From: Kribbella steppae
GTDB lineage: Bacteria > Actinomycetota > Actinomycetes > Propionibacteriales > Kribbellaceae
Length of the DNA stretch: 64,000 bases
Direction: 5' to 3'
Assembly: GCF_004342025.1 (NCBI RefSeq)
Contig: NZ_SLWN01000011.1
Location: 62,001 to 126,000 of the forward strand
The position numbers and the translations under genes were made by a program. Positions 6,020 through 49,527 of the stretch are shown here, piece after piece (position 1 is the stretch's first letter; each line of letters starts with the position of its first letter). Under the pieces are notes generated by a model. The model saw only the letters and a program-made list of their open reading frames with translations, did no database searches and was not told the origin of the DNA.

Positions 6020-6117
6020 GTCACTCCTCGGACTCACTGGATAACCGGGCGTGGTCATCCGTACCCAGTTTCCGCCCGCCGCTGGAGTTTGGTGAAAAAC
6101 TCACCAACCCTTTCCAC

Positions 6118-6780
6118 TCAGATCGAAGGGTGGATGATCTCGTCGCGGAGCCAGCGGGCGGCGTGATCCGGGTACGGGCGTGGCAGCGACAGGACGATGT
6201 GGTCGAAGCCCAGCGCGACAGCCCGGCGTACGACGGACCGGGTGGCGGCCGGGTCGTCGTACGAGACGATCTGCTGGAGTGAGCGGCCGATCTCACCCGG
6301 GTCCCGGCCGATCCGGGCGCACTCCGCGTCCAAGCGCCGTACCCGATCTTCGAGGAATTCGAAGTCGTTGTGGGGTGGGCCGCTGATGTTCCAGCTGTCG
6401 GCGTGCTCCGCGATCAGGCGCATCATCCGGTTGCCCCAGCCACCGATCAGAAGTGGGGGGCCGGGGCGTTGGATCGGCTTCGGCTCGTTCCGGTTCGCTT
6501 CGAGGGTGTAGTAGCGGCCGCGGTAGTCGAAGACGTCCTGGGTCCACATGCCGCGCAGGATCTCGATGGTCTCGCGCAGCCGGTCGACACCTTCACGCGG
6601 CGGGACCAGAGTCAGCCCGTACGACGCGTACTCCGCAACGGCCGGGTTATCGCCGGGGATGCCGCCGGCGCCGGGCGGCTGATGGGTGCCGCCGGCACCG
6701 AGTCCCATGACGAGCCGACCGCCGGAGATGATGTCGAGCGTGCTGGCGATCTTGCCGAGCACAGCCGGCGGGCGGATGCG
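6118..6780 (-). pseudogene. LLM-class (F420/flavin) oxidoreductase, 5'-truncated
   Basis: About 220 residues match the C-terminal two thirds of a luciferase-like monooxygenase: PPAVLGKIASTLDIISGGRL, VMGLGAGGTHQPPGAG, IEILRGMW, GPPLLIGGWGNRMMRLIAEH and a C-terminal helix. The roughly 90 N-terminal residues that form the first strands of the TIM barrel and part of the flavin pocket are absent; upstream of the PPAVLGK segment the frame reads into unrelated sequence that faces the divergent LLM gene. I infer a gene that lost its 5' end by deletion. The frame remains open upstream, so a hybrid protein could still be made, but it would not be a normal enzyme. Confidence 0.65.
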
Positions 6781-6855
6781 GCTTCCGCGAAGATCTCCGC
6801 AAGCTCCTCTACTGACCTTGGGAATGGCGCTGCGAATGCGGTAGTTGAACGAGGC

Positions 6856-7863
6856 ATGTCCGCACTGACTGGTGTTCCGTTGTCTGTGCTCGACCGCTCG
6901 AGGACTCGAGTTGGTGAGTCGGAGGCGGAGACCCTGCGGCAGACCGTCGCGTTGGCCCAGCAGGTGGAAGAGCTTGGCTACAAGCGTTTCTGGGTGTCTG
7001 AGCACCACAGTGTCCCCGGTGTGGTCGGCTCGGCGCCGACTGTGCTGGCGGCGGCTGTTGCGGCCAGCACCAGCCGGATCCGCGTCGGCACGGGCGGTGT
7101 GATGCTGCCGAACCACCGCCCACTCGTGGTGGCTGAGCAGTTCGGCGTACTCGAGTCACTCTTCCCTGGCCGCATCGACATGGGTCTGGGCCGCTCGGTG
7201 GGCTTCACCAACGGCATCCGCCGAGCACTTGGCGTCGAGAAGGATGCGGCCGAGGACTTCGCCGTACAGGTCCGGGAGCTGCTCGGGTACTTCGACGGCA
7301 CGCAGCAGAGCCACCCACAGGTCCACGCCCGCCCCGGCGAAGGCCTGCGCGTCCCACCCTTCATCCTCGCCGTAGGAGAAGGCGCACTCCTTGCAGCCTC
7401 GCTAGGCCTCCCCCTGGTCATCGCCGGCGTCAAAGCCGAGTCAGACCTGCTGCAGTTGCTGGACCGCTACCGCACCGAGTTCCAGCCGTCCACGTGGGCT
7501 CCGAGGCCTTACGTCGTACTGGCAACGAGTGCTGCGGTTGCAGCAACCACTGAAGCGGCGCGACGGCTACTACTGCCTGAGGCTTGGTCCAGCGCCTACT
7601 CGCGCACCCGTGGGGTGTTCCCACCGCTGGAGCCGGTACAGCAACGGGACATGACCGAGAAGGAGCACGGGTTCTTCGAGCAGTCCCTCCGCGGCCAGAT
7701 CTACGGCACTCCGGAGGAGGTCGACGCCGCACTGGGCGGTCTGGTACGCCGTACCGCGGCTGACGAAGTGTTGCTCACGACAAGCACCTACGACCGCTCG
7801 GACCTACTCGCCTCGTACGCCGCTCTCGCCGAACTGGCCGGCACCCGCAGCACCGTCAGCTGA
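6856..7863 (+). CDS. LLM-class flavin-dependent oxidoreductase (MsnO8-like)
   Basis: 335 residues, full length for a luciferase-like monooxygenase. It starts with LSVLDRSRTRVG, continues with YKRFWVSEHHSVPG (flavin region), IRVGTGGVMLPNHRPLVVAEQ and FPGRIDMGLGRSVG, the pattern of the MsnO8 / alkane-monooxygenase-like subgroup using FMN or F420. Start ATG at 6856 opens this conserved stretch. It is divergent from the truncated LLM gene and overlaps the convergent GNAT gene by 8 nt at the 3' end. Substrate unknown. Confidence 0.8.
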   Translation: MSALTGVPLSVLDRSRTRVGESEAETLRQTVALAQQVEELGYKRFWVSEHHSVPGVVGSAPTVLAAAVAASTSRIRVGTGGVMLPNHRPLVVAEQFGVLESLFPGRIDMGLGRSVGFTNGIRRALGVEKDAAEDFAVQVRELLGYFDGTQQSHPQVHARPGEGLRVPPFILAVGEGALLAASLGLPLVIAGVKAESDLLQLLDRYRTEFQPSTWAPRPYVVLATSAAVAATTEAARRLLLPEAWSSAYSRTRGVFPPLEPVQQRDMTEKEHGFFEQSLRGQIYGTPEEVDAALGGLVRRTAADEVLLTTSTYDRSDLLASYAALAELAGTRSTVS

Positions 7864-8443
7864 GGCGGTCCTCGAGCCGCTTGCGGACCTCCGGCCACTC
7901 ATCGGCCAGGATCGAGAACACCACGGTGTCGCGGAACGAGCCGTCCGCGAGCCGCTTGTGCCGGCGCAGTACGCCCTCTCGCGTCGCACCCAGCTTCGCG
8001 ATCGCTGCCTGGGACCGGGTGTTCGCCGTACCGGTCTGGATCTTCACCCGGCCGAAGCCACAGTCCTCGAAGGCGTGCTGCAGCAGCAGGAACTTGCACT
8101 CCGGGTTGACCGCGGTCCCCCACACCGACGGCGCATAGCCGGTCCAGCCCAGGTGCACCGACTCGTTGCCAAGGTCCACGTCTCCGAGGCTCGTTGTACC
8201 GACGACGGTGCCGTCGGCAACCAGTCGGACGACGTACGCCACTCGCTTGGCGGATGACTCGATCCACTGCCCGGCCATCTCCGCCGCGTCGGCGGGCAGG
8301 CCGGCGATGCCGCCGCCGAACCCGGACGCGTACACCTGCTCGTTCGCGATCGCGTCGTACAGCGGTTCGATGTCGGCGGCAACGAGACGGTCCAGCCGGA
8401 CGACGTCGCCGACCAGCGGCCGACCGTCGGGAGCAACAGTCAT
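7856..8443 (-). CDS. GNAT-family N-acetyltransferase (RimJ/RimL type)
   Basis: 195 residues of the RimJ/RimL-like GNAT subgroup: LVGDVVRLDRL start, VVGTTSLGDVDLGNESVHLG and WGTAVNPECKFLLLQHAFE, with RVKIQTGTANTRSQAAIAKL carrying the Asn that contacts acetyl-CoA and the phosphopantetheine. It starts 10 nt after cdsA and is probably the last gene of that operon. The acceptor (protein N-terminus or small amine) cannot be predicted. Confidence 0.85.
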   Translation of the reverse strand: MTVAPDGRPLVGDVVRLDRLVAADIEPLYDAIANEQVYASGFGGGIAGLPADAAEMAGQWIESSAKRVAYVVRLVADGTVVGTTSLGDVDLGNESVHLGWTGYAPSVWGTAVNPECKFLLLQHAFEDCGFGRVKIQTGTANTRSQAAIAKLGATREGVLRRHKRLADGSFRDTVVFSILADEWPEVRKRLEDRLS

Positions 8444-8453
8444 CAGGTCCTCA

Positions 8454-9296
8454 TCAGACGAGTACGTGCAGCAGCAGCCAGACGGCCGGAGCCGTGGCCA
8501 GCAAGGAGTCCAGCCGGTCCATCACGCCGCCGTGACCCGGCAGCAGGTTGGACATGTCCTTGATGCCGAGGTCCCGCTTGATCATCGACTCGCCGAGATC
8601 GCCCACGGTCGCGGTGACGACGGCGACCGCGCCGACGATCGCACCGGCCCACCAGTTCCCGTCGAGGAGCCAGACGACAGAGCCGATGCCGGCACCGATA
8701 CAGGCCAGCGTCGAGCCGGCGAAGCCCTCCCAGGACTTCTTCGGGCTGATCGTCGGCGCCATCGGATGCTTGCCGAACAGCACACCGGCCGCGTAACCGC
8801 CGACGTCGCTGGCGACCACGACCAGGAAGAACGTCACCACCCGCTGCGGACCGTCCACCTCCGGCTGGACCAGCAGGATCGCGAACCCGGCCAGCAGCGG
8901 TACGTACCCGATCAGGAACACTCCGGCACTGGCATCGCGGACGAAGCCGACCGAACCGCCCGGCATCCGCCAGAAGATCGTCGCCAGCACCGTGATCGCG
9001 AGCGCGACCAGCAGCGCCATCGGCCCACCGAAGTACGCCGCCATCAGCATCGCCGTCGTACCGGCGAACATCGGAATCCGCGGAATGACCGCGCCGCCCG
9101 TGCGGAGCGCCTTGATCATCTCGTCGACGGCGACCAGCACGGTCGCCAGCACCAGGACCGTGAACAGGACCTTCTGCCAGAACAGCGACCCGATGATCAG
9201 CGCGCCGAGGCCGACACCGACCGCGATGGCCGCCGGCAGGTTGCGGCCGGCGCGGCTCGGGCTGGGGCTCGGCGCGGGCGTACTCTCGACGCCCAT
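8454..9296 (-). CDS. cdsA: Phosphatidate cytidylyltransferase
   Basis: 280-residue polytopic membrane enzyme making CDP-diacylglycerol from phosphatidate and CTP, the entry to phospholipid synthesis. About eight hydrophobic segments are visible. SPKKSWEGFAGS and the C-terminal GDLGESMIKRDLGIKDMSNL with the following GHGGVMDRLDSL form the CDP-alcohol/CdsA signature with the metal-binding Asp pair. The ATG at 9296 overlaps the frr stop (TGATG); a GTG at 9299 is an alternative. The proline/serine-rich first 15 residues are cytoplasmic. Confidence 0.93.
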   Translation of the reverse strand: MGVESTPAPSPSPSRAGRNLPAAIAVGVGLGALIIGSLFWQKVLFTVLVLATVLVAVDEMIKALRTGGAVIPRIPMFAGTTAMLMAAYFGGPMALLVALAITVLATIFWRMPGGSVGFVRDASAGVFLIGYVPLLAGFAILLVQPEVDGPQRVVTFFLVVVASDVGGYAAGVLFGKHPMAPTISPKKSWEGFAGSTLACIGAGIGSVVWLLDGNWWAGAIVGAVAVVTATVGDLGESMIKRDLGIKDMSNLLPGHGGVMDRLDSLLATAPAVWLLLHVLV

Positions 9297-9853
9297 CACA
9301 CCTCGAGCAGTTCGGCTTCCTTGTGCTTGAGCAGCTCGTCGATCGAGTCGACGTACTTCTTCGTCAACCCGTCGAGCCGCTTCTCAGCACTCTTGCCCTC
9401 GTCCTCGCCCGCGTCGCCGTCCTTGACGGTCTTGTGCACCTGGTCCATGGCGTGCCGGCGGATGTTGCGCATGGAGACCTTGGCCTCCTCGGCCTTGGTC
9501 TTGGCGACCTTGATGTACTCCTTGCGCCGCTCCTCGGTCAGCTGCGGCATCACCACCCGGATCACCGCGCCGTCGTTGCCCGGGTTGACGCCCAGGTCCG
9601 AGTCGCGGATCGCCTTCTCGATCGCCGCCATCGCGCCCTTGTCGTACGGCGAGATCAGCACGGTCCGGGGCTCGGGCACCTGGAAACCGGCCAGCTGCTG
9701 CAGCGGCGTCGGGCTGCCGTAGTAGTCGGCCAGCAGGCTCGCGAACATCTGCGGGTGGGCCCGGCCGGTGCGGATCGCGGCGAAGTCGTCCTTCGCGACC
9801 TCCACGGCCTTCGCCATTTTCTGCTCGGCTTCGCGGAGAGCTTCGTCGATCAC
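9296..9853 (-). CDS. frr: Ribosome recycling factor
   Basis: 185 residues, the exact usual length. The GTG at 9853 (GAGGAA ribosome site upstream) gives [20 protein letters not shown], the normal N-terminus; earlier in-frame starts would add a non-conserved leader. [38 protein letters not shown] and [13 protein letters not shown] are all family signatures. Acts with EF-G to split terminated ribosomes. Overlaps cdsA by 1 nt. Confidence 0.96.
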
Positions 9854-10055
9854 GACATTCCTCGCTTCCTCAGGGCCGCCTCGGCGCGGCCGCTCCAAAC
9901 CTGCGAACACAGGAACCCTACGAACGCAGGTCTACCAGACCACGGACGTCACCGCCCGTGTCGAACGATCCTAGTGCTTGTTCCCGGCCGGGCCGATCCC
10001 GGTCCTCGGGTACGACGACCCACCCCGGTCACCCGGGCGTGTCGCAGTACCTGGG
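9854..10055. other. pyrH-frr spacer
   Basis: 202-nt GC-rich gap inside the ribosomal/lipid operon. I see no open frame with a credible protein and no perfect hairpin of more than about 7 bp. It may hold a processing site or a promoter for frr-cdsA, but no convincing -10/-35 pair was identified. Confidence 0.4.
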
Positions 10056-10817
10056 CTACTGCCCCGGGGAGACGACCGTGCCGATCTTCTCGCCGTGCAC
10101 GACCCGGGCGATGTTGCCCTCCTCGAGGCCGAAGATGACGATCGGCAGCGCGTTGTCCCGGGCGAGGCTGATCGCGGTGGCGTCGGCCACCCGCAGCCCA
10201 CGGGCCAGGAAGTCGTCGTACGAGAGCTGGTCGAACTTCACCGCGTCCGGGTTCTTCTTCGGATCGGAGTCGTACACCCCGTCCACACCCTGCTTGCCCA
10301 TCAGCAGCGCCTCGGCGCCGATCTCCAGGGCCCGCTGCGCGGCGACCGTGTCGGTGGAGAAGTACGGCATGCCGGAGCCGGCGCCGAAGATCACCACGCG
10401 GCCCTTCTCCAGATGCCGCTCGGCCTTGCGCGGGATGTACGGCTCGGCAACCTGGCCCATCGTGATCGCGGTCTGCACCCGGGTCTCGATGCCGATCTTC
10501 TCCAGGAAGTCCTGCAGCGCCAGGCAGTTCATCACGGTGCCGAGCATGCCCATGTAGTCGGCCCGGTTGCGCTCCATCCCGCGCTGCTGCAGCTCGGCGC
10601 CGCGGAAGAAGTTGCCGCCGCCGACCACCACGGCGACCTGGACACCGGACCGGGCCACGTCGGCGATCTGCTTGGCGATCGAGTTCACCACATCGGGGTC
10701 GACGCCGAGCTTGCCGCCGCCGAACACCTCACCCGACAGCTTGAGCAGCACCCGGTGATAGGCCGGGAGATGCGGCGAAGAGGCCGGACTCGTCTCGGTA
10801 CCCAGGGTTTCCGTCAC
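10056..10817 (-). CDS. pyrH: UMP kinase
   Basis: 253-residue hexameric amino-acid-kinase-fold enzyme phosphorylating UMP to [68 protein letters not shown] and [19 protein letters not shown] are all diagnostic. The N-terminus has a 20-residue Ser/Thr-rich extension before the first strand. Start is GTG at 10817 with a GAGGAGG ribosome site 9 nt upstream. Sits between tsf and frr as in other actinobacteria. Confidence 0.96.
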
Positions 10818-10866
10818 GATTCCGGCCTCCTCGTCGATGATGCTGTGCTGTCAGTCCCTGCTGGGG

Positions 10867-11685
10867 TCAGGCGCCGACCTCGAAGCGGGCGAACCGCTTC
10901 ACGGTCACGCCGGCCTCGTCGAGCACGGCCTTCACGGTCTTCTTGCTCTCCTGGACCGACGGCTGCTCGAGCAGCACGACCTCCTTGAAGAAGCCGTTCA
11001 CCCGGCCCTCGACGATCTTCGGCAGCGCCTGCTCCGGCTTGCCCTCCTCGCGGGCGGTCGCCTCGGCGATCCGCTGCTCGTTCTCGACCGTCTCGGCCGG
11101 GATCTCGTCGCGGGTGGTGTACAGCGGGCGCATCGCGGCGGCCTGCATGGCGGCGCCACGGGCGGCCTCCACGTTGTCGCCCTCGAACTCGACCAGTACG
11201 CCGACCTGCGCCGGCAGGTCCGCGGCACGCTTGTGCATGTACGCGGCGACCTTGCCGTCGAACACGGCCACCTTGCCGAGCTCGAGCTTCTCGCCGATGA
11301 CGGCGGCCAGGGCCTCGATGTTCTCGGCGACGCTCTTGCCGTCGGCCAGCTTCTCGCTCAGCAGACCCTCGACGTCGCCCACCTTGCTCGCGGCGGCGTG
11401 CGCGACGATGTCGGCGGCCAGCTGCTGGAACTGCTCGTTCTTGGCGACGAAGTCGGTCTCGCAGTTGAGCTGGACCAGCGCGTTCTCCGCCGCGGCCACC
11501 AGGCCGTTGGTGGCGGAGCGCTCGGCGCCACGCTTGGCGGCCTTGGCCGCGCCCTTGATGCGCAGCTCCTCGATCGCCTTGTCGAAGTCGCCGTCGGTCG
11601 CCTCGAGCGCCTTCTTCGCGTCCATCATGCCCGCGCCGGTGGCGTCGCGGAGCTTCTTCACGTCAGCGGCGGTGTAGTTCGCCAT
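10867..11685 (-). CDS. tsf: Translation elongation factor Ts
   Basis: 272 residues; nucleotide-exchange factor for EF-Tu. Start ATG at 11685 gives [20 protein letters not shown], with the N-terminal UBA-like module, [19 protein letters not shown], and the core-domain [11 protein letters not shown] motif that opens EF-Tu. GAGGA ribosome site just upstream. The frame extends far upstream through the rpsB-tsf spacer without a stop, but that stretch has no EF-Ts similarity. Confidence 0.96.
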
Positions 11686-11873
11686 TCCTCGTTCTCTCGT
11701 CTTGTCGGTGCGGCTGGATGGGCGGCCTGCAGGTTTCGGCGGGCGCTTCCGCGGCAGTCCGCGGTGCCCACTCGGCCTGATGCTTGGGGGCCCAGTGCAT
11801 GCTGTGGGCCTGGTGCTCCGGGCCTCGTGCTTCTGGGCCCGGTGCTTGCGGCCCGGTGGTTGGGCCTTGGGTG

Positions 11874-43480: not shown

Positions 43481-44710
43481 TCAGCCGTGCGAGCCGCCGC
43501 CCGGGGTGCAGGTGGGCGTGGTCGGATCACTCGTCGAGCACGGCGTACTGGTCGGCGTGTCCGACGGGGTCGGAGTCGGCGTCGGGGTTGGTGTCGGCGT
43601 GGGGGTCGGTGTCGGCGTGGGAGTCGGCGTCGGGGTCGGCGTCGGCCTTGTCGGCGGCCGGGTCGGCTTGTGCGTCGGCTCCTTGGTCGGCGTGTCCACC
43701 GGGTCCGGCACAGTGGGCTCGTCCGTGGTCGGCGCGGTCGGCTTCGGCTTCGGCGTGGTGGACGTGGTCGGCTTGTCGTCCGCGATGTCCGGCACGTCGC
43801 GCGGGTCCACCTTGCGCTCGGCGTTACCGGTTGCCCTGGGCACCGACAGGCTGCCCTTCTCGTTCGGGATCAGCACCGCGTTCTTGCTGTAGACCCGCAT
43901 CCACTTCAGCACGGTGGCGACGAAGTCCTTGGAGTGCTGGTACCGCAGCAGGGACGCGACCAGGTCACGCGGCCGCTTGAGGTCGTCGCCCTCCGAGCAC
44001 AGGTACACCGCGACCGTGGTGACCGCGTCGTACACGTTGTTCGGGTTGCGGAAGCCGTCACCGTTGCCATCGGCGCCGAATTCGGTCCACACCTGCGGAA
44101 TGATCTGCATCGGACCGACCGCACGGTCCCAGGTCAGATCGCTGTCGTACCGGCCCTTGTCGGAGTCGGTGATCCGGCCGTTGCCGCCGCGACCGTTCAG
44201 CACCGGGCCGAGGATCTTGCCCCGGGTGGTGCCGGCCACGTCGACCCGGCCGCCGCTGGCGTGGTCGGACTCGACCTTGCCGATCCCGGCCAGCAACGGC
44301 CAGGTGAGCCCACAGTTCGGCCGGACCACGGCGAGATTCGCGGTGGCGCGGCGGTAGGCGGGGAACACCCCGCGCGGGATGCCGTTGACGGCATCCGGTC
44401 GTCCCGGCCGGACCACGGACCGGCCGTCGGTCGCACCCTGGACGGGTACGTCGGCACGGGCAGGTTTGTCCGAACCGACCCGGCCGTCCACTCCGGGACG
44501 CTGCGGGACGATCATCGTCAGTTCGTCGAACTCACCGCTGTTCAGACCGGCTCCAGGCGATGGAGCAACCGGGCTGTCCGCCGCGAGCTGACCGGAGGCA
44601 CCGGCCCCGCCCGAGGCGACTGTCACGATGGCCCCGACCAGGAGAGGGGCCGTGCACAGTGAGGCGATGATGATTTTGACCCGACGGTTACCACTACGGG
44701 TTAGGCGCAT
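43481..44710 (-). CDS. Secreted lytic transglycosylase-like protein with Pro-Thr tail (paralogue 1)
   Basis: 409 residues. Signal anchor (IIIASLCTAPLLVGAIVTVA), spacer, then an SLT_2-type domain (about 105-265): LTWPLLAGIGKVESDHASGG with the catalytic Glu, GKILGPVLNG, RAVGPMQIIPQVWTEFGADG and DAVTTVAVYLCSEG. The C-terminal 110 residues are Pro/Thr-rich, with an unbroken (PT) run of about 13 units, probably a glycosylated cell-wall-spanning stalk. Same architecture as the downstream-strand neighbour at 44889. Confidence 0.85.
   Translation of the reverse strand: MRLTRSGNRRVKIIIASLCTAPLLVGAIVTVASGGAGASGQLAADSPVAPSPGAGLNSGEFDELTMIVPQRPGVDGRVGSDKPARADVPVQGATDGRSVVRPGRPDAVNGIPRGVFPAYRRATANLAVVRPNCGLTWPLLAGIGKVESDHASGGRVDVAGTTRGKILGPVLNGRGGNGRITDSDKGRYDSDLTWDRAVGPMQIIPQVWTEFGADGNGDGFRNPNNVYDAVTTVAVYLCSEGDDLKRPRDLVASLLRYQHSKDFVATVLKWMRVYSKNAVLIPNEKGSLSVPRATGNAERKVDPRDVPDIADDKPTTSTTPKPKPTAPTTDEPTVPDPVDTPTKEPTHKPTRPPTRPTPTPTPTPTPTPTPTPTPTPTPTPTPSDTPTSTPCSTSDPTTPTCTPGGGSHG
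43557..43650 (-). repeat. (GTCGGC)-type microsatellite encoding the Pro-Thr run
   Basis: Plus-strand hexanucleotide repeats of GTCGGN/GTGGGG type, all in frame, encoding PTPTPT on the minus strand. Likely length-variable by slippage. Confidence 0.85.
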
Positions 44711-44888: not shown

Positions 44889-46226
<1,338 letters not shown>

Positions 46227-46386
46227 CCGAGCCGTCCTTCGACGTGTTCGCAGTACCGGGGTGTTCGGGCGTAGGCACGATCTTAGTCGCCAGAGGGTTA
46301 CGGACAACCGGTAACGGTGCGCCACTTCACGCAGTCACCAAGTACCGATCAAGCTCCCCCTCGCGTGTCACCCACCGTACGCGCGC

Positions 46387-48099: not shown

Positions 48100-48528
48100 A
48101 TGGACATCGCGGGTTTCAACTCTGCCTTTTCCGGGGCCAGGCGCCGGATCAGGTCCGAGCGGGCAGATGTCGGCCGGGAGCAGGAGCGGCTGCGCGCACT
48201 GGTGTCGGCCGACGATCCCGCCGAGGACCGCGACTGGGCCTTGCGCCTGATCGAGTCGCTCGCCGTACCGCCCGCACCGCCTCGTCAGTGGAGTGCGCTG
48301 TACGACGAAGCCGGCGCGATCCACGCCGATTCGTACCGGACGGGCGACACCGTCGAGGAACGCATCGCTGCACTGCAGGAGGCACGTCGACGCATCTGGG
48401 CGATCGCCGATCGCGCGCCCGAGGACGAGGCGCCGCACATCAGGGCGATGACCCGAGTGCTCGACCACCTCGAAGCCGAGCTTCGCGAGCCGAGCTGGAC
48501 CGACGGCCCCGCAGGCCCGGGAAGCTGA
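48100..48528 (+). CDS. Unknown helical protein, first gene of a two-gene unit
   Basis: 142 residues, rich in Arg, Glu and Ala, without signal peptide or membrane segment; predicted almost all helical from composition. FNSAFSGARRRIRSERADVG and EERIAALQEARRRIWAIADR look like coiled-coil arms around a Pro-rich loop (AVPPAPPRQW). I do not recognise a family. Three nucleotides separate it from the zincin-like gene, so the two products probably act together. GAGGAAC precedes the ATG. Confidence 0.65.
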   Translation: MDIAGFNSAFSGARRRIRSERADVGREQERLRALVSADDPAEDRDWALRLIESLAVPPAPPRQWSALYDEAGAIHADSYRTGDTVEERIAALQEARRRIWAIADRAPEDEAPHIRAMTRVLDHLEAELREPSWTDGPAGPGS

Positions 48529-48531
48529 CTC

Positions 48532-49527
48532 GTGGCCGCCGCCGACCGGCTGATCGCGCCTGAGTCTGCGGTCTACCGGGAGTTCGTGCGCCTGTACCGG
48601 ATAGCCCGGACGCTCCGGTCGACGCCGGTGGACAGATGGAACGGTGAGCTCTACGCCACCGACACCGCCGTCTGGGGCAGCGTGAGCCCGCTGACCGGCG
48701 CTGTCCGTCTCTCCGCCCAGCTCGTGCTGCCGCACTTGACTGGAAAGACGTCGCATCACCACCCCGTCGAGCAGGCCGAGGCGCTGGCCACGGTCCTGCA
48801 CGAGTCGACGCACGCAGGCATGGCGCTGAAGGCCCCCACCGAGCCGAATGCGGTGGACTCCAAGCACAGCCTCGGCCTGACCGAGGGTGTCGCCGAAGTG
48901 CGCGCCATTGAGGACTTCCAGGCTTTCACCTGGCGGGCGGGCTACCAGGATGTCGTGCTGCCCGGACCGCAGTACGAAGGTGCCTTCGCGGCGACTGACC
49001 GCCTGCTCGACCAGGCCAGTGGAATCTTCACGTCACGGGAAGATCTGACGGACGAGCTCGTCGCGGGTCCAGCTGCGACGCATTTCGATCGACTCGCCGG
49101 CGGCGTCGTCCGCAACCGGCTGTGGGATGTCGTGCCACACCACCCGGATCATCAACGCGCGGTGCGAGCGGCGCTCATCAGACCGATGCTTCACGACGTG
49201 TGGCCTCAGCTTCCCGACCAGCCGACAAGCATCGGTGAGCGGGTCGCGCTGGAGATTCGGATGGGGCTGGATGCGAAGGTCGATGAGGTTCGGCGGTATT
49301 ACCGGGGCGGCGGTTGGCGGCCGTTCGAGGGTGAGGGGTTTGGGCAGGTGGCCGGGCGTGGACGGCTCGAGGCCGGGTCTGCGGAGGCCGATGTGGCTGG
49401 TGGCTTGCGATTCCTGGATGCGCAGGCGCCAGCGGATGGAGCCGTAGCACTGAGGCCGTCGCTGGGGCTAGGTGCGCGGCGCACCGGCCCGCCCTCCACG
49501 CCAGAGCCGGGCCGCACCCGTGAGTGA
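48532..49527 (+). CDS. Unknown protein with a zincin-type HExxH motif
   Basis: 331 residues, no signal peptide. LATVLHESTHAGMALK holds HESTH (90-94), the zinc-protease helix, and LTEGVAEVRAIE 24 residues later offers the third glutamate ligand (E118 or E122) as in gluzincins. The rest is helical with a Gly/Pro-rich C-terminal 60 residues. Possible roles are a cytosolic protease, a conflict-system effector or a polymorphic-toxin-like product; none can be chosen from sequence. Start GTG at 48532. Confidence 0.65.
   Translation: MAAADRLIAPESAVYREFVRLYRIARTLRSTPVDRWNGELYATDTAVWGSVSPLTGAVRLSAQLVLPHLTGKTSHHHPVEQAEALATVLHESTHAGMALKAPTEPNAVDSKHSLGLTEGVAEVRAIEDFQAFTWRAGYQDVVLPGPQYEGAFAATDRLLDQASGIFTSREDLTDELVAGPAATHFDRLAGGVVRNRLWDVVPHHPDHQRAVRAALIRPMLHDVWPQLPDQPTSIGERVALEIRMGLDAKVDEVRRYYRGGGWRPFEGEGFGQVAGRGRLEAGSAEADVAGGLRFLDAQAPADGAVALRPSLGLGARRTGPPSTPEPGRTRE

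What the first reader, a model, noticed from the sequence alone, without database searches (positions are those of the whole stretch)
48100..49527. Orphan two-gene unit with a cytosolic HExxH protein
Between ffh and the nitrogen operon lies a pair of genes 3 nt apart: a 142-residue helical protein of no recognised family and a 331-residue protein with HESTH plus a downstream Glu, the gluzincin pattern, without export signal. Tight coupling suggests toxin-antitoxin-like, inhibitor-protease or effector-adaptor function.
Basis: partly seen in the sequence, partly recalled or inferred. Interest (0 to 1): 0.5.

Follow-up and report, generated by a model that had tools for sequence, protein, structure and literature searches.

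The report
Kribbella-specific metalloprotease with helical partner gene
Two adjacent unnamed genes are a fast-evolving pair, found so far only in the soil bacterium Kribbella, that encodes a probable zinc-dependent protease inside the cell and a small helical partner inherited with it, even where the protease has lost its cutting site.

Summary
A 142-aa helical protein (P1, 48100-48528) and a 331-aa HESTH protein (P2, 48532-49527) lie 3 nt apart beside ffh, without a known family. They are not orphans: broad profiles find both families in 38 of 38 Kribbella genomes. Outside the genus a narrower P2 profile hit 0 of 207 genomes of the order and a broad one 0 of 78 of the class. P2 is predicted to be a gluzincin (core pLDDT about 97; best re-ranked structures are M1 aminopeptidases, Z 9.8, though Foldseek E is only 0.33). 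Of 155 full-length homologues 128 keep H90-E91-H94, all 128 with E118. Two separate clades of 10 have lost the site; the one tested (9 members) is under purifying selection. A full-length P1 lies within 600 nt of 104 of 155 P2 genes, a half-length one of 29, a mini-P1 of 13; 9 have none. P1 and P2 trees mirror each other (r 0.88). The unit is present or cleanly absent at its site. Best reading: a co-translated intracellular metalloprotease with a dedicated helical regulator or adaptor. Since the partner is kept beside dead proteases, a pure inhibitor or antitoxin is less likely. Substrate and role are not shown.

The parts
48100..48528 (+). P1: 142-aa all-helical partner protein
   Evidence: ORF; six confident helices, mean pLDDT 93.7; family in 38 of 38 Kribbella genomes; no family match above cut-off
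48352..48489 (+). C-terminal helical hairpin of P1 (about residues 85-130), the part that half-P1 and mini-P1 genes of other loci keep
   Evidence: mini-P1 profile A10 aligns here: hhalign probability 93%, E 3.4e-7 against P1 profile A9; only 39%, E 3e-4 against A8
48532..49527 (+). P2: 331-aa predicted cytosolic gluzincin metallopeptidase
   Evidence: ORF; AF2 core pLDDT about 97; best re-ranked structures M1 aminopeptidases, Z 9.8, Foldseek best E 0.33
48799..48813 (+). HESTH (residues 90-94), predicted zinc and catalytic motif on helix 78-95
   Evidence: in 128 of 155 full-length homologues; secondary structure
48883..48897 (+). E118-G-V-A-E122 on helix 111-135: predicted third zinc ligand (E118) and a second conserved Glu
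   Evidence: E118 in 128 of 128, E122 Glu in 123 and Asp in 5 of homologues with HExxH; of 27 without it, 5 keep E118 and 3 keep E122
48973..48975 (+). Y148: candidate transition-state tyrosine
   Evidence: Tyr in 124 of 128 with HExxH, in 4 of 27 without; Phe in 11 of those 27
49342..49524 (+). Disordered C-terminal tail of P2 (residues 271-331)
   Evidence: pLDDT about 44-52
49408..49479 (+). Conserved short motif in the tail (residues 293-316; RFL..QAP...PSLG.GAR)
   Evidence: R293, L295, L311, G312, R316 invariant in 24 close homologues; a tail profile trained and iterated on family tails hits 56 of 155 and no shuffled tail

Best explanation
The locus is a co-translated two-gene unit encoding an intracellular zinc metalloprotease of the gluzincin fold (P2) and its dedicated helical partner (P1). 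Shown by comparison: the two genes behave as one evolutionary unit; P2 has a conserved gluzincin-type residue set; two clades of P2 have lost that set yet keep a partner, and the one tested is under purifying selection. Inferred: P1 binds P2 directly, through its C-terminal hairpin; P1 controls folding, localisation or substrate access (adaptor or regulatory subunit) and does not merely block the active site; the disordered P2 tail with its short motif is a docking segment, for P1 or for a common target; live and dead P2 may form mixed complexes. Fast divergence, tandem expansion, broken copies and presence or absence at a fixed site suggest adaptation to a changing target, such as conflict with phages or competitors.
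For: Partner on the same strand within 600 nt of 146 of 155 full-length P2 genes: full-length P1 for 104, only a short P1 match for 29, mini-P1 for 13. 68 of 136 gene clusters are simple P1-P2. Mirror trees over 95 pairs, r 0.88, highest of 999 permutations 0.11. In 9 of 13 genomes checked ffh is directly beside the arginase gene, both genes absent together. Fold: all 50 entries listed by VIA-align are zinc metalloenzymes by title, mostly M1 aminopeptidases (best 1z1w, Z 9.8, rmsd 4.0, 183 residues). E118, E122 and Y148 track HExxH. Two dead clades of 10, support 1.0 each; median dN/dS in nine members of the first 0.33 for P2 and 0.28 for P1.
Against: No experiment; no complex model could be run, so binding is untested. 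Foldseek found no PDB match better than E 0.33; VIA-align only re-ranks Foldseek's candidates, and its own note says Z under about 13 can be a common arrangement in mostly helical models, as this one is; I did not check that HExxH aligns with HExxH. 9 of 155 P2 genes have no recognised partner, and one P1 class lies beside a different, secreted peptidase. Mirrored trees follow from linked inheritance alone. The mini-P1 profile was built from these same loci. The tail profile reaches 56 of 155. dN/dS was measured in one dead clade only. Conflict is inferred from evolution; P0002 has no match in plasmids or phages.
Confidence: 0.5

Rival explanations
1. Inhibitor-protease or toxin-antitoxin (effector-immunity) pair: P2 is a toxic intracellular protease and P1, made first, blocks its active site, as emfourin does for protealysin.
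For: P1-P2 is the commonest gene order (68 of 136 clusters) and some loci have extra P1 copies (1-1-2 in 5, 1-1-1-2 in 2); fast evolution and a present-or-absent unit. Precedent: protealysin, an intracellular metalloprotease, shares an operon with its inhibitor emfourin, discussed as effector and immunity (PMC9505478, abstract and passages seen).
Against: The dead clades keep a partner (10 of 10 full-length, 10 of 10 half-length), with P1 constrained in the first. 21 of 128 P2 with HExxH have only a mini-P1 (13) or no recognised partner (8). No match of P0002 in plasmids or phages.
Confidence: 0.28
2. P2 is a structural or regulatory gluzincin-like protein whose site binds zinc or a ligand; proteolysis is not its role, and P1 and P2 form a scaffold.
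For: Two clades lost the site, one shown to stay constrained; disordered tails.
Against: 128 of 155 keep both zinc His and the catalytic Glu; with them E118 in 128 of 128 and Tyr148 in 124 of 128, the set expected for hydrolysis.
Confidence: 0.12
3. The two genes are a linked duplication unit of unrelated functions, and adjacency reflects co-duplication at a hotspot.
For: Tandem arrays and broken copies at the ffh-arginase site; linkage alone could give mirrored trees.
Against: Pairing persists at several other loci, with P2 before P1 in some, and down to a 50-90-aa partner.
Confidence: 0.07

Closest known systems
M1 aminopeptidase catalytic domain and other gluzincins (tricorn factor F3, ERAP2, LTA4 hydrolase, selecase, thermolysin)
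   Same: HExxH helix followed by a helix with a conserved Glu; VIA-align Z 9.8 to 1z1w (183 residues, rmsd 4.0), 6.6 to selecase, 6.3 to thermolysin; a conserved Tyr after the Glu helix, as in M1 (M1 Tyr recalled, from no call)
   Different: No peptidase model above cut-off in Pfam; no GAMEN motif in P2 (motif recalled; sequence); Foldseek E 0.33 at best; disordered tail and operon partner
Protealysin-emfourin operon of Serratia proteamaculans
   Same: Intracellular metalloprotease with a small partner protein in one operon, discussed as effector and immunity (PMC9505478, abstract and passages seen)
   Different: P2 matches no M4 model and P1 no Pfam family above cut-off; the Kribbella partner persists beside dead proteases; 1 to 11 P2 matches per genome
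ImmA/IrrE-type (M78) cytosolic HExxH proteases with a regulator gene (recalled, from no call)
   Same: Cytosolic HExxH protein encoded beside a small protein
   Different: No M78 match for P2 and no DNA-binding-domain match for P1 in Pfam
Metallopeptidases of polymorphic toxin and conflict systems (PMC3482391, PMC7159879: search listing only)
   Same: Rapid diversification and small partner genes (likeness recalled)
   Different: No delivery domain seen, no PADLOC match; found in one genus only

Membership tests
Gluzincin metallopeptidase (clan MA) | HExxH zinc motif on a helix | tested here: met
   HESTH, residues 90-94 on helix 78-95; 128 of 155 homologues
Gluzincin metallopeptidase (clan MA) | Third-ligand Glu on a downstream helix | tested here: met
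   E118 on helix 111-135, Glu in 128 of 128 homologues with HExxH; ligand geometry was not measured
Gluzincin metallopeptidase (clan MA) | Zincin fold | tested here: inconclusive
   VIA-align lists zinc metalloenzymes throughout, best Z 9.8, but the tool warns that Z under about 13 may be a common arrangement in helical models, and Foldseek's best E is 0.33
Gluzincin metallopeptidase (clan MA) | Zinc binding and peptide hydrolysis | not testable with these tools
   needs purified protein
M1 aminopeptidase family | Match to the family's sequence models | tested here: not met
   no peptidase model above cut-off for P0002 or its 34 homologues in A7
M1 aminopeptidase family | GAMEN exopeptidase motif (recalled) | tested here: not met
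   absent from the P2 sequence
Protealysin-emfourin type protease-inhibitor pair | Protease belongs to the M4 (thermolysin) family | tested here: not met
   no Pfam or NCBIfam match
Protealysin-emfourin type protease-inhibitor pair | Partner blocks the protease active site | not testable with these tools
   needs an inhibition assay; partner kept beside dead P2 speaks against a sole role of this kind
Toxin-antitoxin system | Two adjacent genes inherited as a unit | tested here: met
Toxin-antitoxin system | Toxicity neutralised by the partner | not testable with these tools
   needs an expression test
Toxin-antitoxin system | Occurrence on mobile elements (common, not essential) | tested here: not met
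   P0002 (P1 not searched): no match in 72,556 plasmid and 50,697 phage records

The most novel reading that the evidence does not exclude
A genus-specific, rapidly diversifying protease system in which catalytically live and dead gluzincins share one family of helical adaptors through a minimal hairpin and a disordered docking tail, giving each Kribbella species its own set of active and decoy protease complexes, possibly for phage defence or kin competition.
Probability: 0.25. Interest if true: 0.75.

Novelty: new variant of a known kind. Interest (0 to 1): 0.5.

Why it matters
It marks out a probable metalloprotease family and a partner family that the searched libraries do not hold, present in every Kribbella genome searched, with natural experiments built in: empty sites, dead-enzyme clades that keep a partner, and partners reduced to a single hairpin. 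These make the question of what a protease-partner operon does beyond inhibition directly testable.

Tried and rejected
Orphan gene pair: rejected, both families occur in 38 of 38 Kribbella genomes. General actinobacterial system: the narrow P2 profile A1 matched 30 of 38 Kribbella and 0 of 207 other genomes of the order; the broad profile A4 was run outside the genus on 78 genomes only, with no match, so distant relatives elsewhere are not excluded. P1 profile A9 gave two borderline hits (E 4e-4, 6e-4) in 158 non-Kribbella genomes, taken as chance and not looked at. Scans with patterns for close relatives: none in viral contigs, 8 loci in genome contigs.

Encapsulin-like or other cargo tag for the tail: dropped. 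In 38 genomes the motif profile hit two weak places outside P2 genes, both antisense to another gene by my own gene caller. Single-member weak Pfam hits (DUF2201_N, TsiV, TPR-S, DUF7553 and others) and DUF7844 below cut-off were not followed. NCBIfam gave P1 one hit far below cut-off (HistKinChvGCaul, E 0.0026). P1 structure matches were generic helical bundles (14-3-3, MIT, BAG; Z up to 8.4), taken as uninformative. PDB sequence search with the P2 profile gave designed armadillo proteins (E 1e-5), taken as chance helical likeness without a further test. Literature: Kribbella with metalloprotease gave 3 papers, none on this pair by title; the rows listed by three broader searches (10 of 395, none of 0, 10 of 69) showed nothing on it.

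Rows dropped: 31 of 181 P2 and 36 of 186 P1 places were not listed by the tool and not sought out; 16 of 171 P2 hits with at most 200 model positions were left out; 3 of 155 rows with a gap at a catalytic column were left out of the tree. The 27 proteins without HExxH include fragments and one contig-edge copy besides the two clades of 10. The 'neighbour' count accepts weak and half-length P1 hits; one search separates them; the 95 pairs needed a full-length P1 within 150 nt. The tail regexes (loose: 73 of 151 tails, 12.4 in shuffles; strict: 60 of 151, 1.8) were written after seeing tails.

Full report
What is there. Two ORFs lie on the + strand: P1, 48100-48528, 142 aa, and P2, 48532-49527, 331 aa, 3 nt apart. 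Upstream and divergent is ffh; downstream are an arginase-family gene, a DUF2332 gene, glnD, a P-II gene and an ammonium transporter. Neither protein matches Pfam, NCBIfam, PHROGs or PADLOC above cut-off. Of 34 homologues of P2 (Pfam, NCBIfam) and 48 of P1 (Pfam) only single members gave weak hits. Their GC3 is low for the window: 0.81 and 0.79 against a median of 0.88 in 57 genes called by my own simple gene finder.

Distribution. With single sequences P2 was found in 20 of 39 genomes and P1 in 22 of 39, all of the window's genus. With broad profiles both families occur in 38 of 38 genomes of the genus, 181 P2 and 186 P1 matches. Outside it the narrower profile A1, which finds 30 of 38 Kribbella, matched 0 of 207 genomes of the order, and the broad A4 matched none of 78 other genomes of the class.

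One unit. Of the 150 listed P2 places 100 have a same-strand P1 within 600 nt, 92 of them within 120 nt. I then examined 155 full-length P2 proteins from 134 sources: 104 have a full-length P1 within 600 nt, 29 only a short P1 match of 55-103 aa, 13 a mini-P1 found with a profile built from these loci, and 9 none. The mini-P1 genes encode 50-90 aa that resemble the last hairpin of P1 (hhalign 93%, E 3.4e-7 against A9; 39%, E 3e-4 against A8). Gene order is P1-P2 in 68 of 136 clusters; 23 are P2 alone by the P1 profiles, and P2-P1-P2, P1-P1-P2 and arrays of up to four pairs occur. Over 95 pairs the trees of P1 and P2 correlate at r 0.88 (highest of 999 permutations 0.11); linked inheritance alone could give this.

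Site and tempo. In 25 of 38 genomes, the window's included, the unit lies at the ffh-arginase site; in three of these (G040, G046, G050) I saw only the arginase side, in G018 no arginase gene was found, and in G016 P2 is cut to about 100 aa. In 9 others ffh and the arginase gene are neighbours, 156-405 nt between aligned ends; G015 ends at a contig edge; G009, G013 and G021, with copies elsewhere, were not checked. Two genomes with an empty site are close by flank (ffh 96-97% identical). Against the window, ffh is 86-97%, the arginase protein about 69-85% and DUF2332 65-89% identical, P1 35-69% and P2 31-58%. Arrays contain broken copies. This is the pattern of genes under changing selection.

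P2 as a protease. The AF2 model has a core of about 270 residues at pLDDT about 97 and a disordered tail. Foldseek gives nothing better than E 0.33. In VIA-align's re-ranking of Foldseek's candidates all 50 listed entries are zinc metalloenzymes by title, mostly M1 aminopeptidases, Z up to 9.8 over 183 residues; selecase has 6.6, thermolysin 6.3, and one is the endoribonuclease YbeY. The tool warns that Z under about 13 may be a common arrangement in helical models, so the sequence evidence weighs more. Among the 128 homologues with H90-E91-H94, E118 is Glu in 128, E122 Glu in 123 and Asp in 5, Y148 Tyr in 124, while core columns average 42% identity. In the 27 without the motif these positions vary, while W36 is kept in 24 of 24 with a letter there and P202 in about 93%: loss of catalysis with retention of fold.

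Pseudo-proteases. The tree shows two separate dead clades of 10, each with support 1.0, and five live/dead changes in all (24 dead of 152). In the first, E91, H94, E122 and Y148 are lost in all 10, H90 in 7, and E118 is Asp in 8. In the second, H90, E91 and E118 are lost in all 10 and H94 in 9; E122 is Asp and Y148 Phe in all 10. The first clade has a full-length P1 within 22 nt in 10 of 10; the second a half-P1 of 66-72 aa in 10 of 10, in some loci between a live and a dead P2 (L121, L154). In nine members of the first clade median dN/dS is 0.33 for P2 and 0.28 for P1, against 0.31 and 0.25 in six live pairs (Nei-Gojobori); so these proteins are constrained. The second clade was not tested.

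Tail. After a variable linker the close homologues end with RFLxGxAPAxGA...SLGDGSR. A profile trained and iterated on such tails finds it in 56 of 155, and in no shuffled tail; looser forms such as ALSGLAPP are seen in others. Outside P2 genes it gave two weak hits in 38 genomes, both antisense to a called gene. I read it as a docking motif; that is inference.

Mechanism. Most likely P1 and P2 are made together and form a complex in the cytosol, in which the P1 hairpin contacts P2 and P1 sets the activity or targeting of the protease. The nearest studied gene layout I found is protealysin with emfourin, an intracellular metalloprotease and its operon-encoded inhibitor (PMC9505478, abstract and passages read). 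No substrate or phenotype follows from sequence. The listed rows of the searches run show nothing on this pair.

Changes made on checking: the zincin-fold membership row was lowered to inconclusive, and counts of partners were split by length.

Noticed in passing
L106 6922-8489 (own genome); also L109, L110, L111, L112: A conserved P1 paralogue (149-151 aa) lies 155-213 nt downstream of a HEYGH protein with an apparent signal peptide in all five genomes looked at; Pfam, run on L106 only, calls it PF04228 neutral zinc metallopeptidase. P1-like proteins may partner unrelated zinc peptidases.
   Followed up: partly
window 43481-44710 and 44889-46325 (- strand): Two related tandem proteins with hydrophobic N-termini and long Thr-Pro repeat tails, no Pfam match at 1e-5; by eye they resemble secreted lytic-transglycosylase-like proteins.
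   Followed up: no
L035 (G018) 6088-11791: Array of several P1 and P2 copies at the ffh site, some P2 copies split into pieces in different frames.
   Followed up: partly
L121 4970-9207: Live P2, half-length P1 (66 aa) and dead P2 in a row beside a 560-aa gene; a 560-aa gene in the corresponding place of L108 is an ABC-type ATPase by Pfam.
   Followed up: partly
L096 / L217: A contig titled Streptomyces sp. SID13031 carries the pair and has the same length as a contig of a genome the tool places in the window's genus; the title is probably a misnomer.
   Followed up: no
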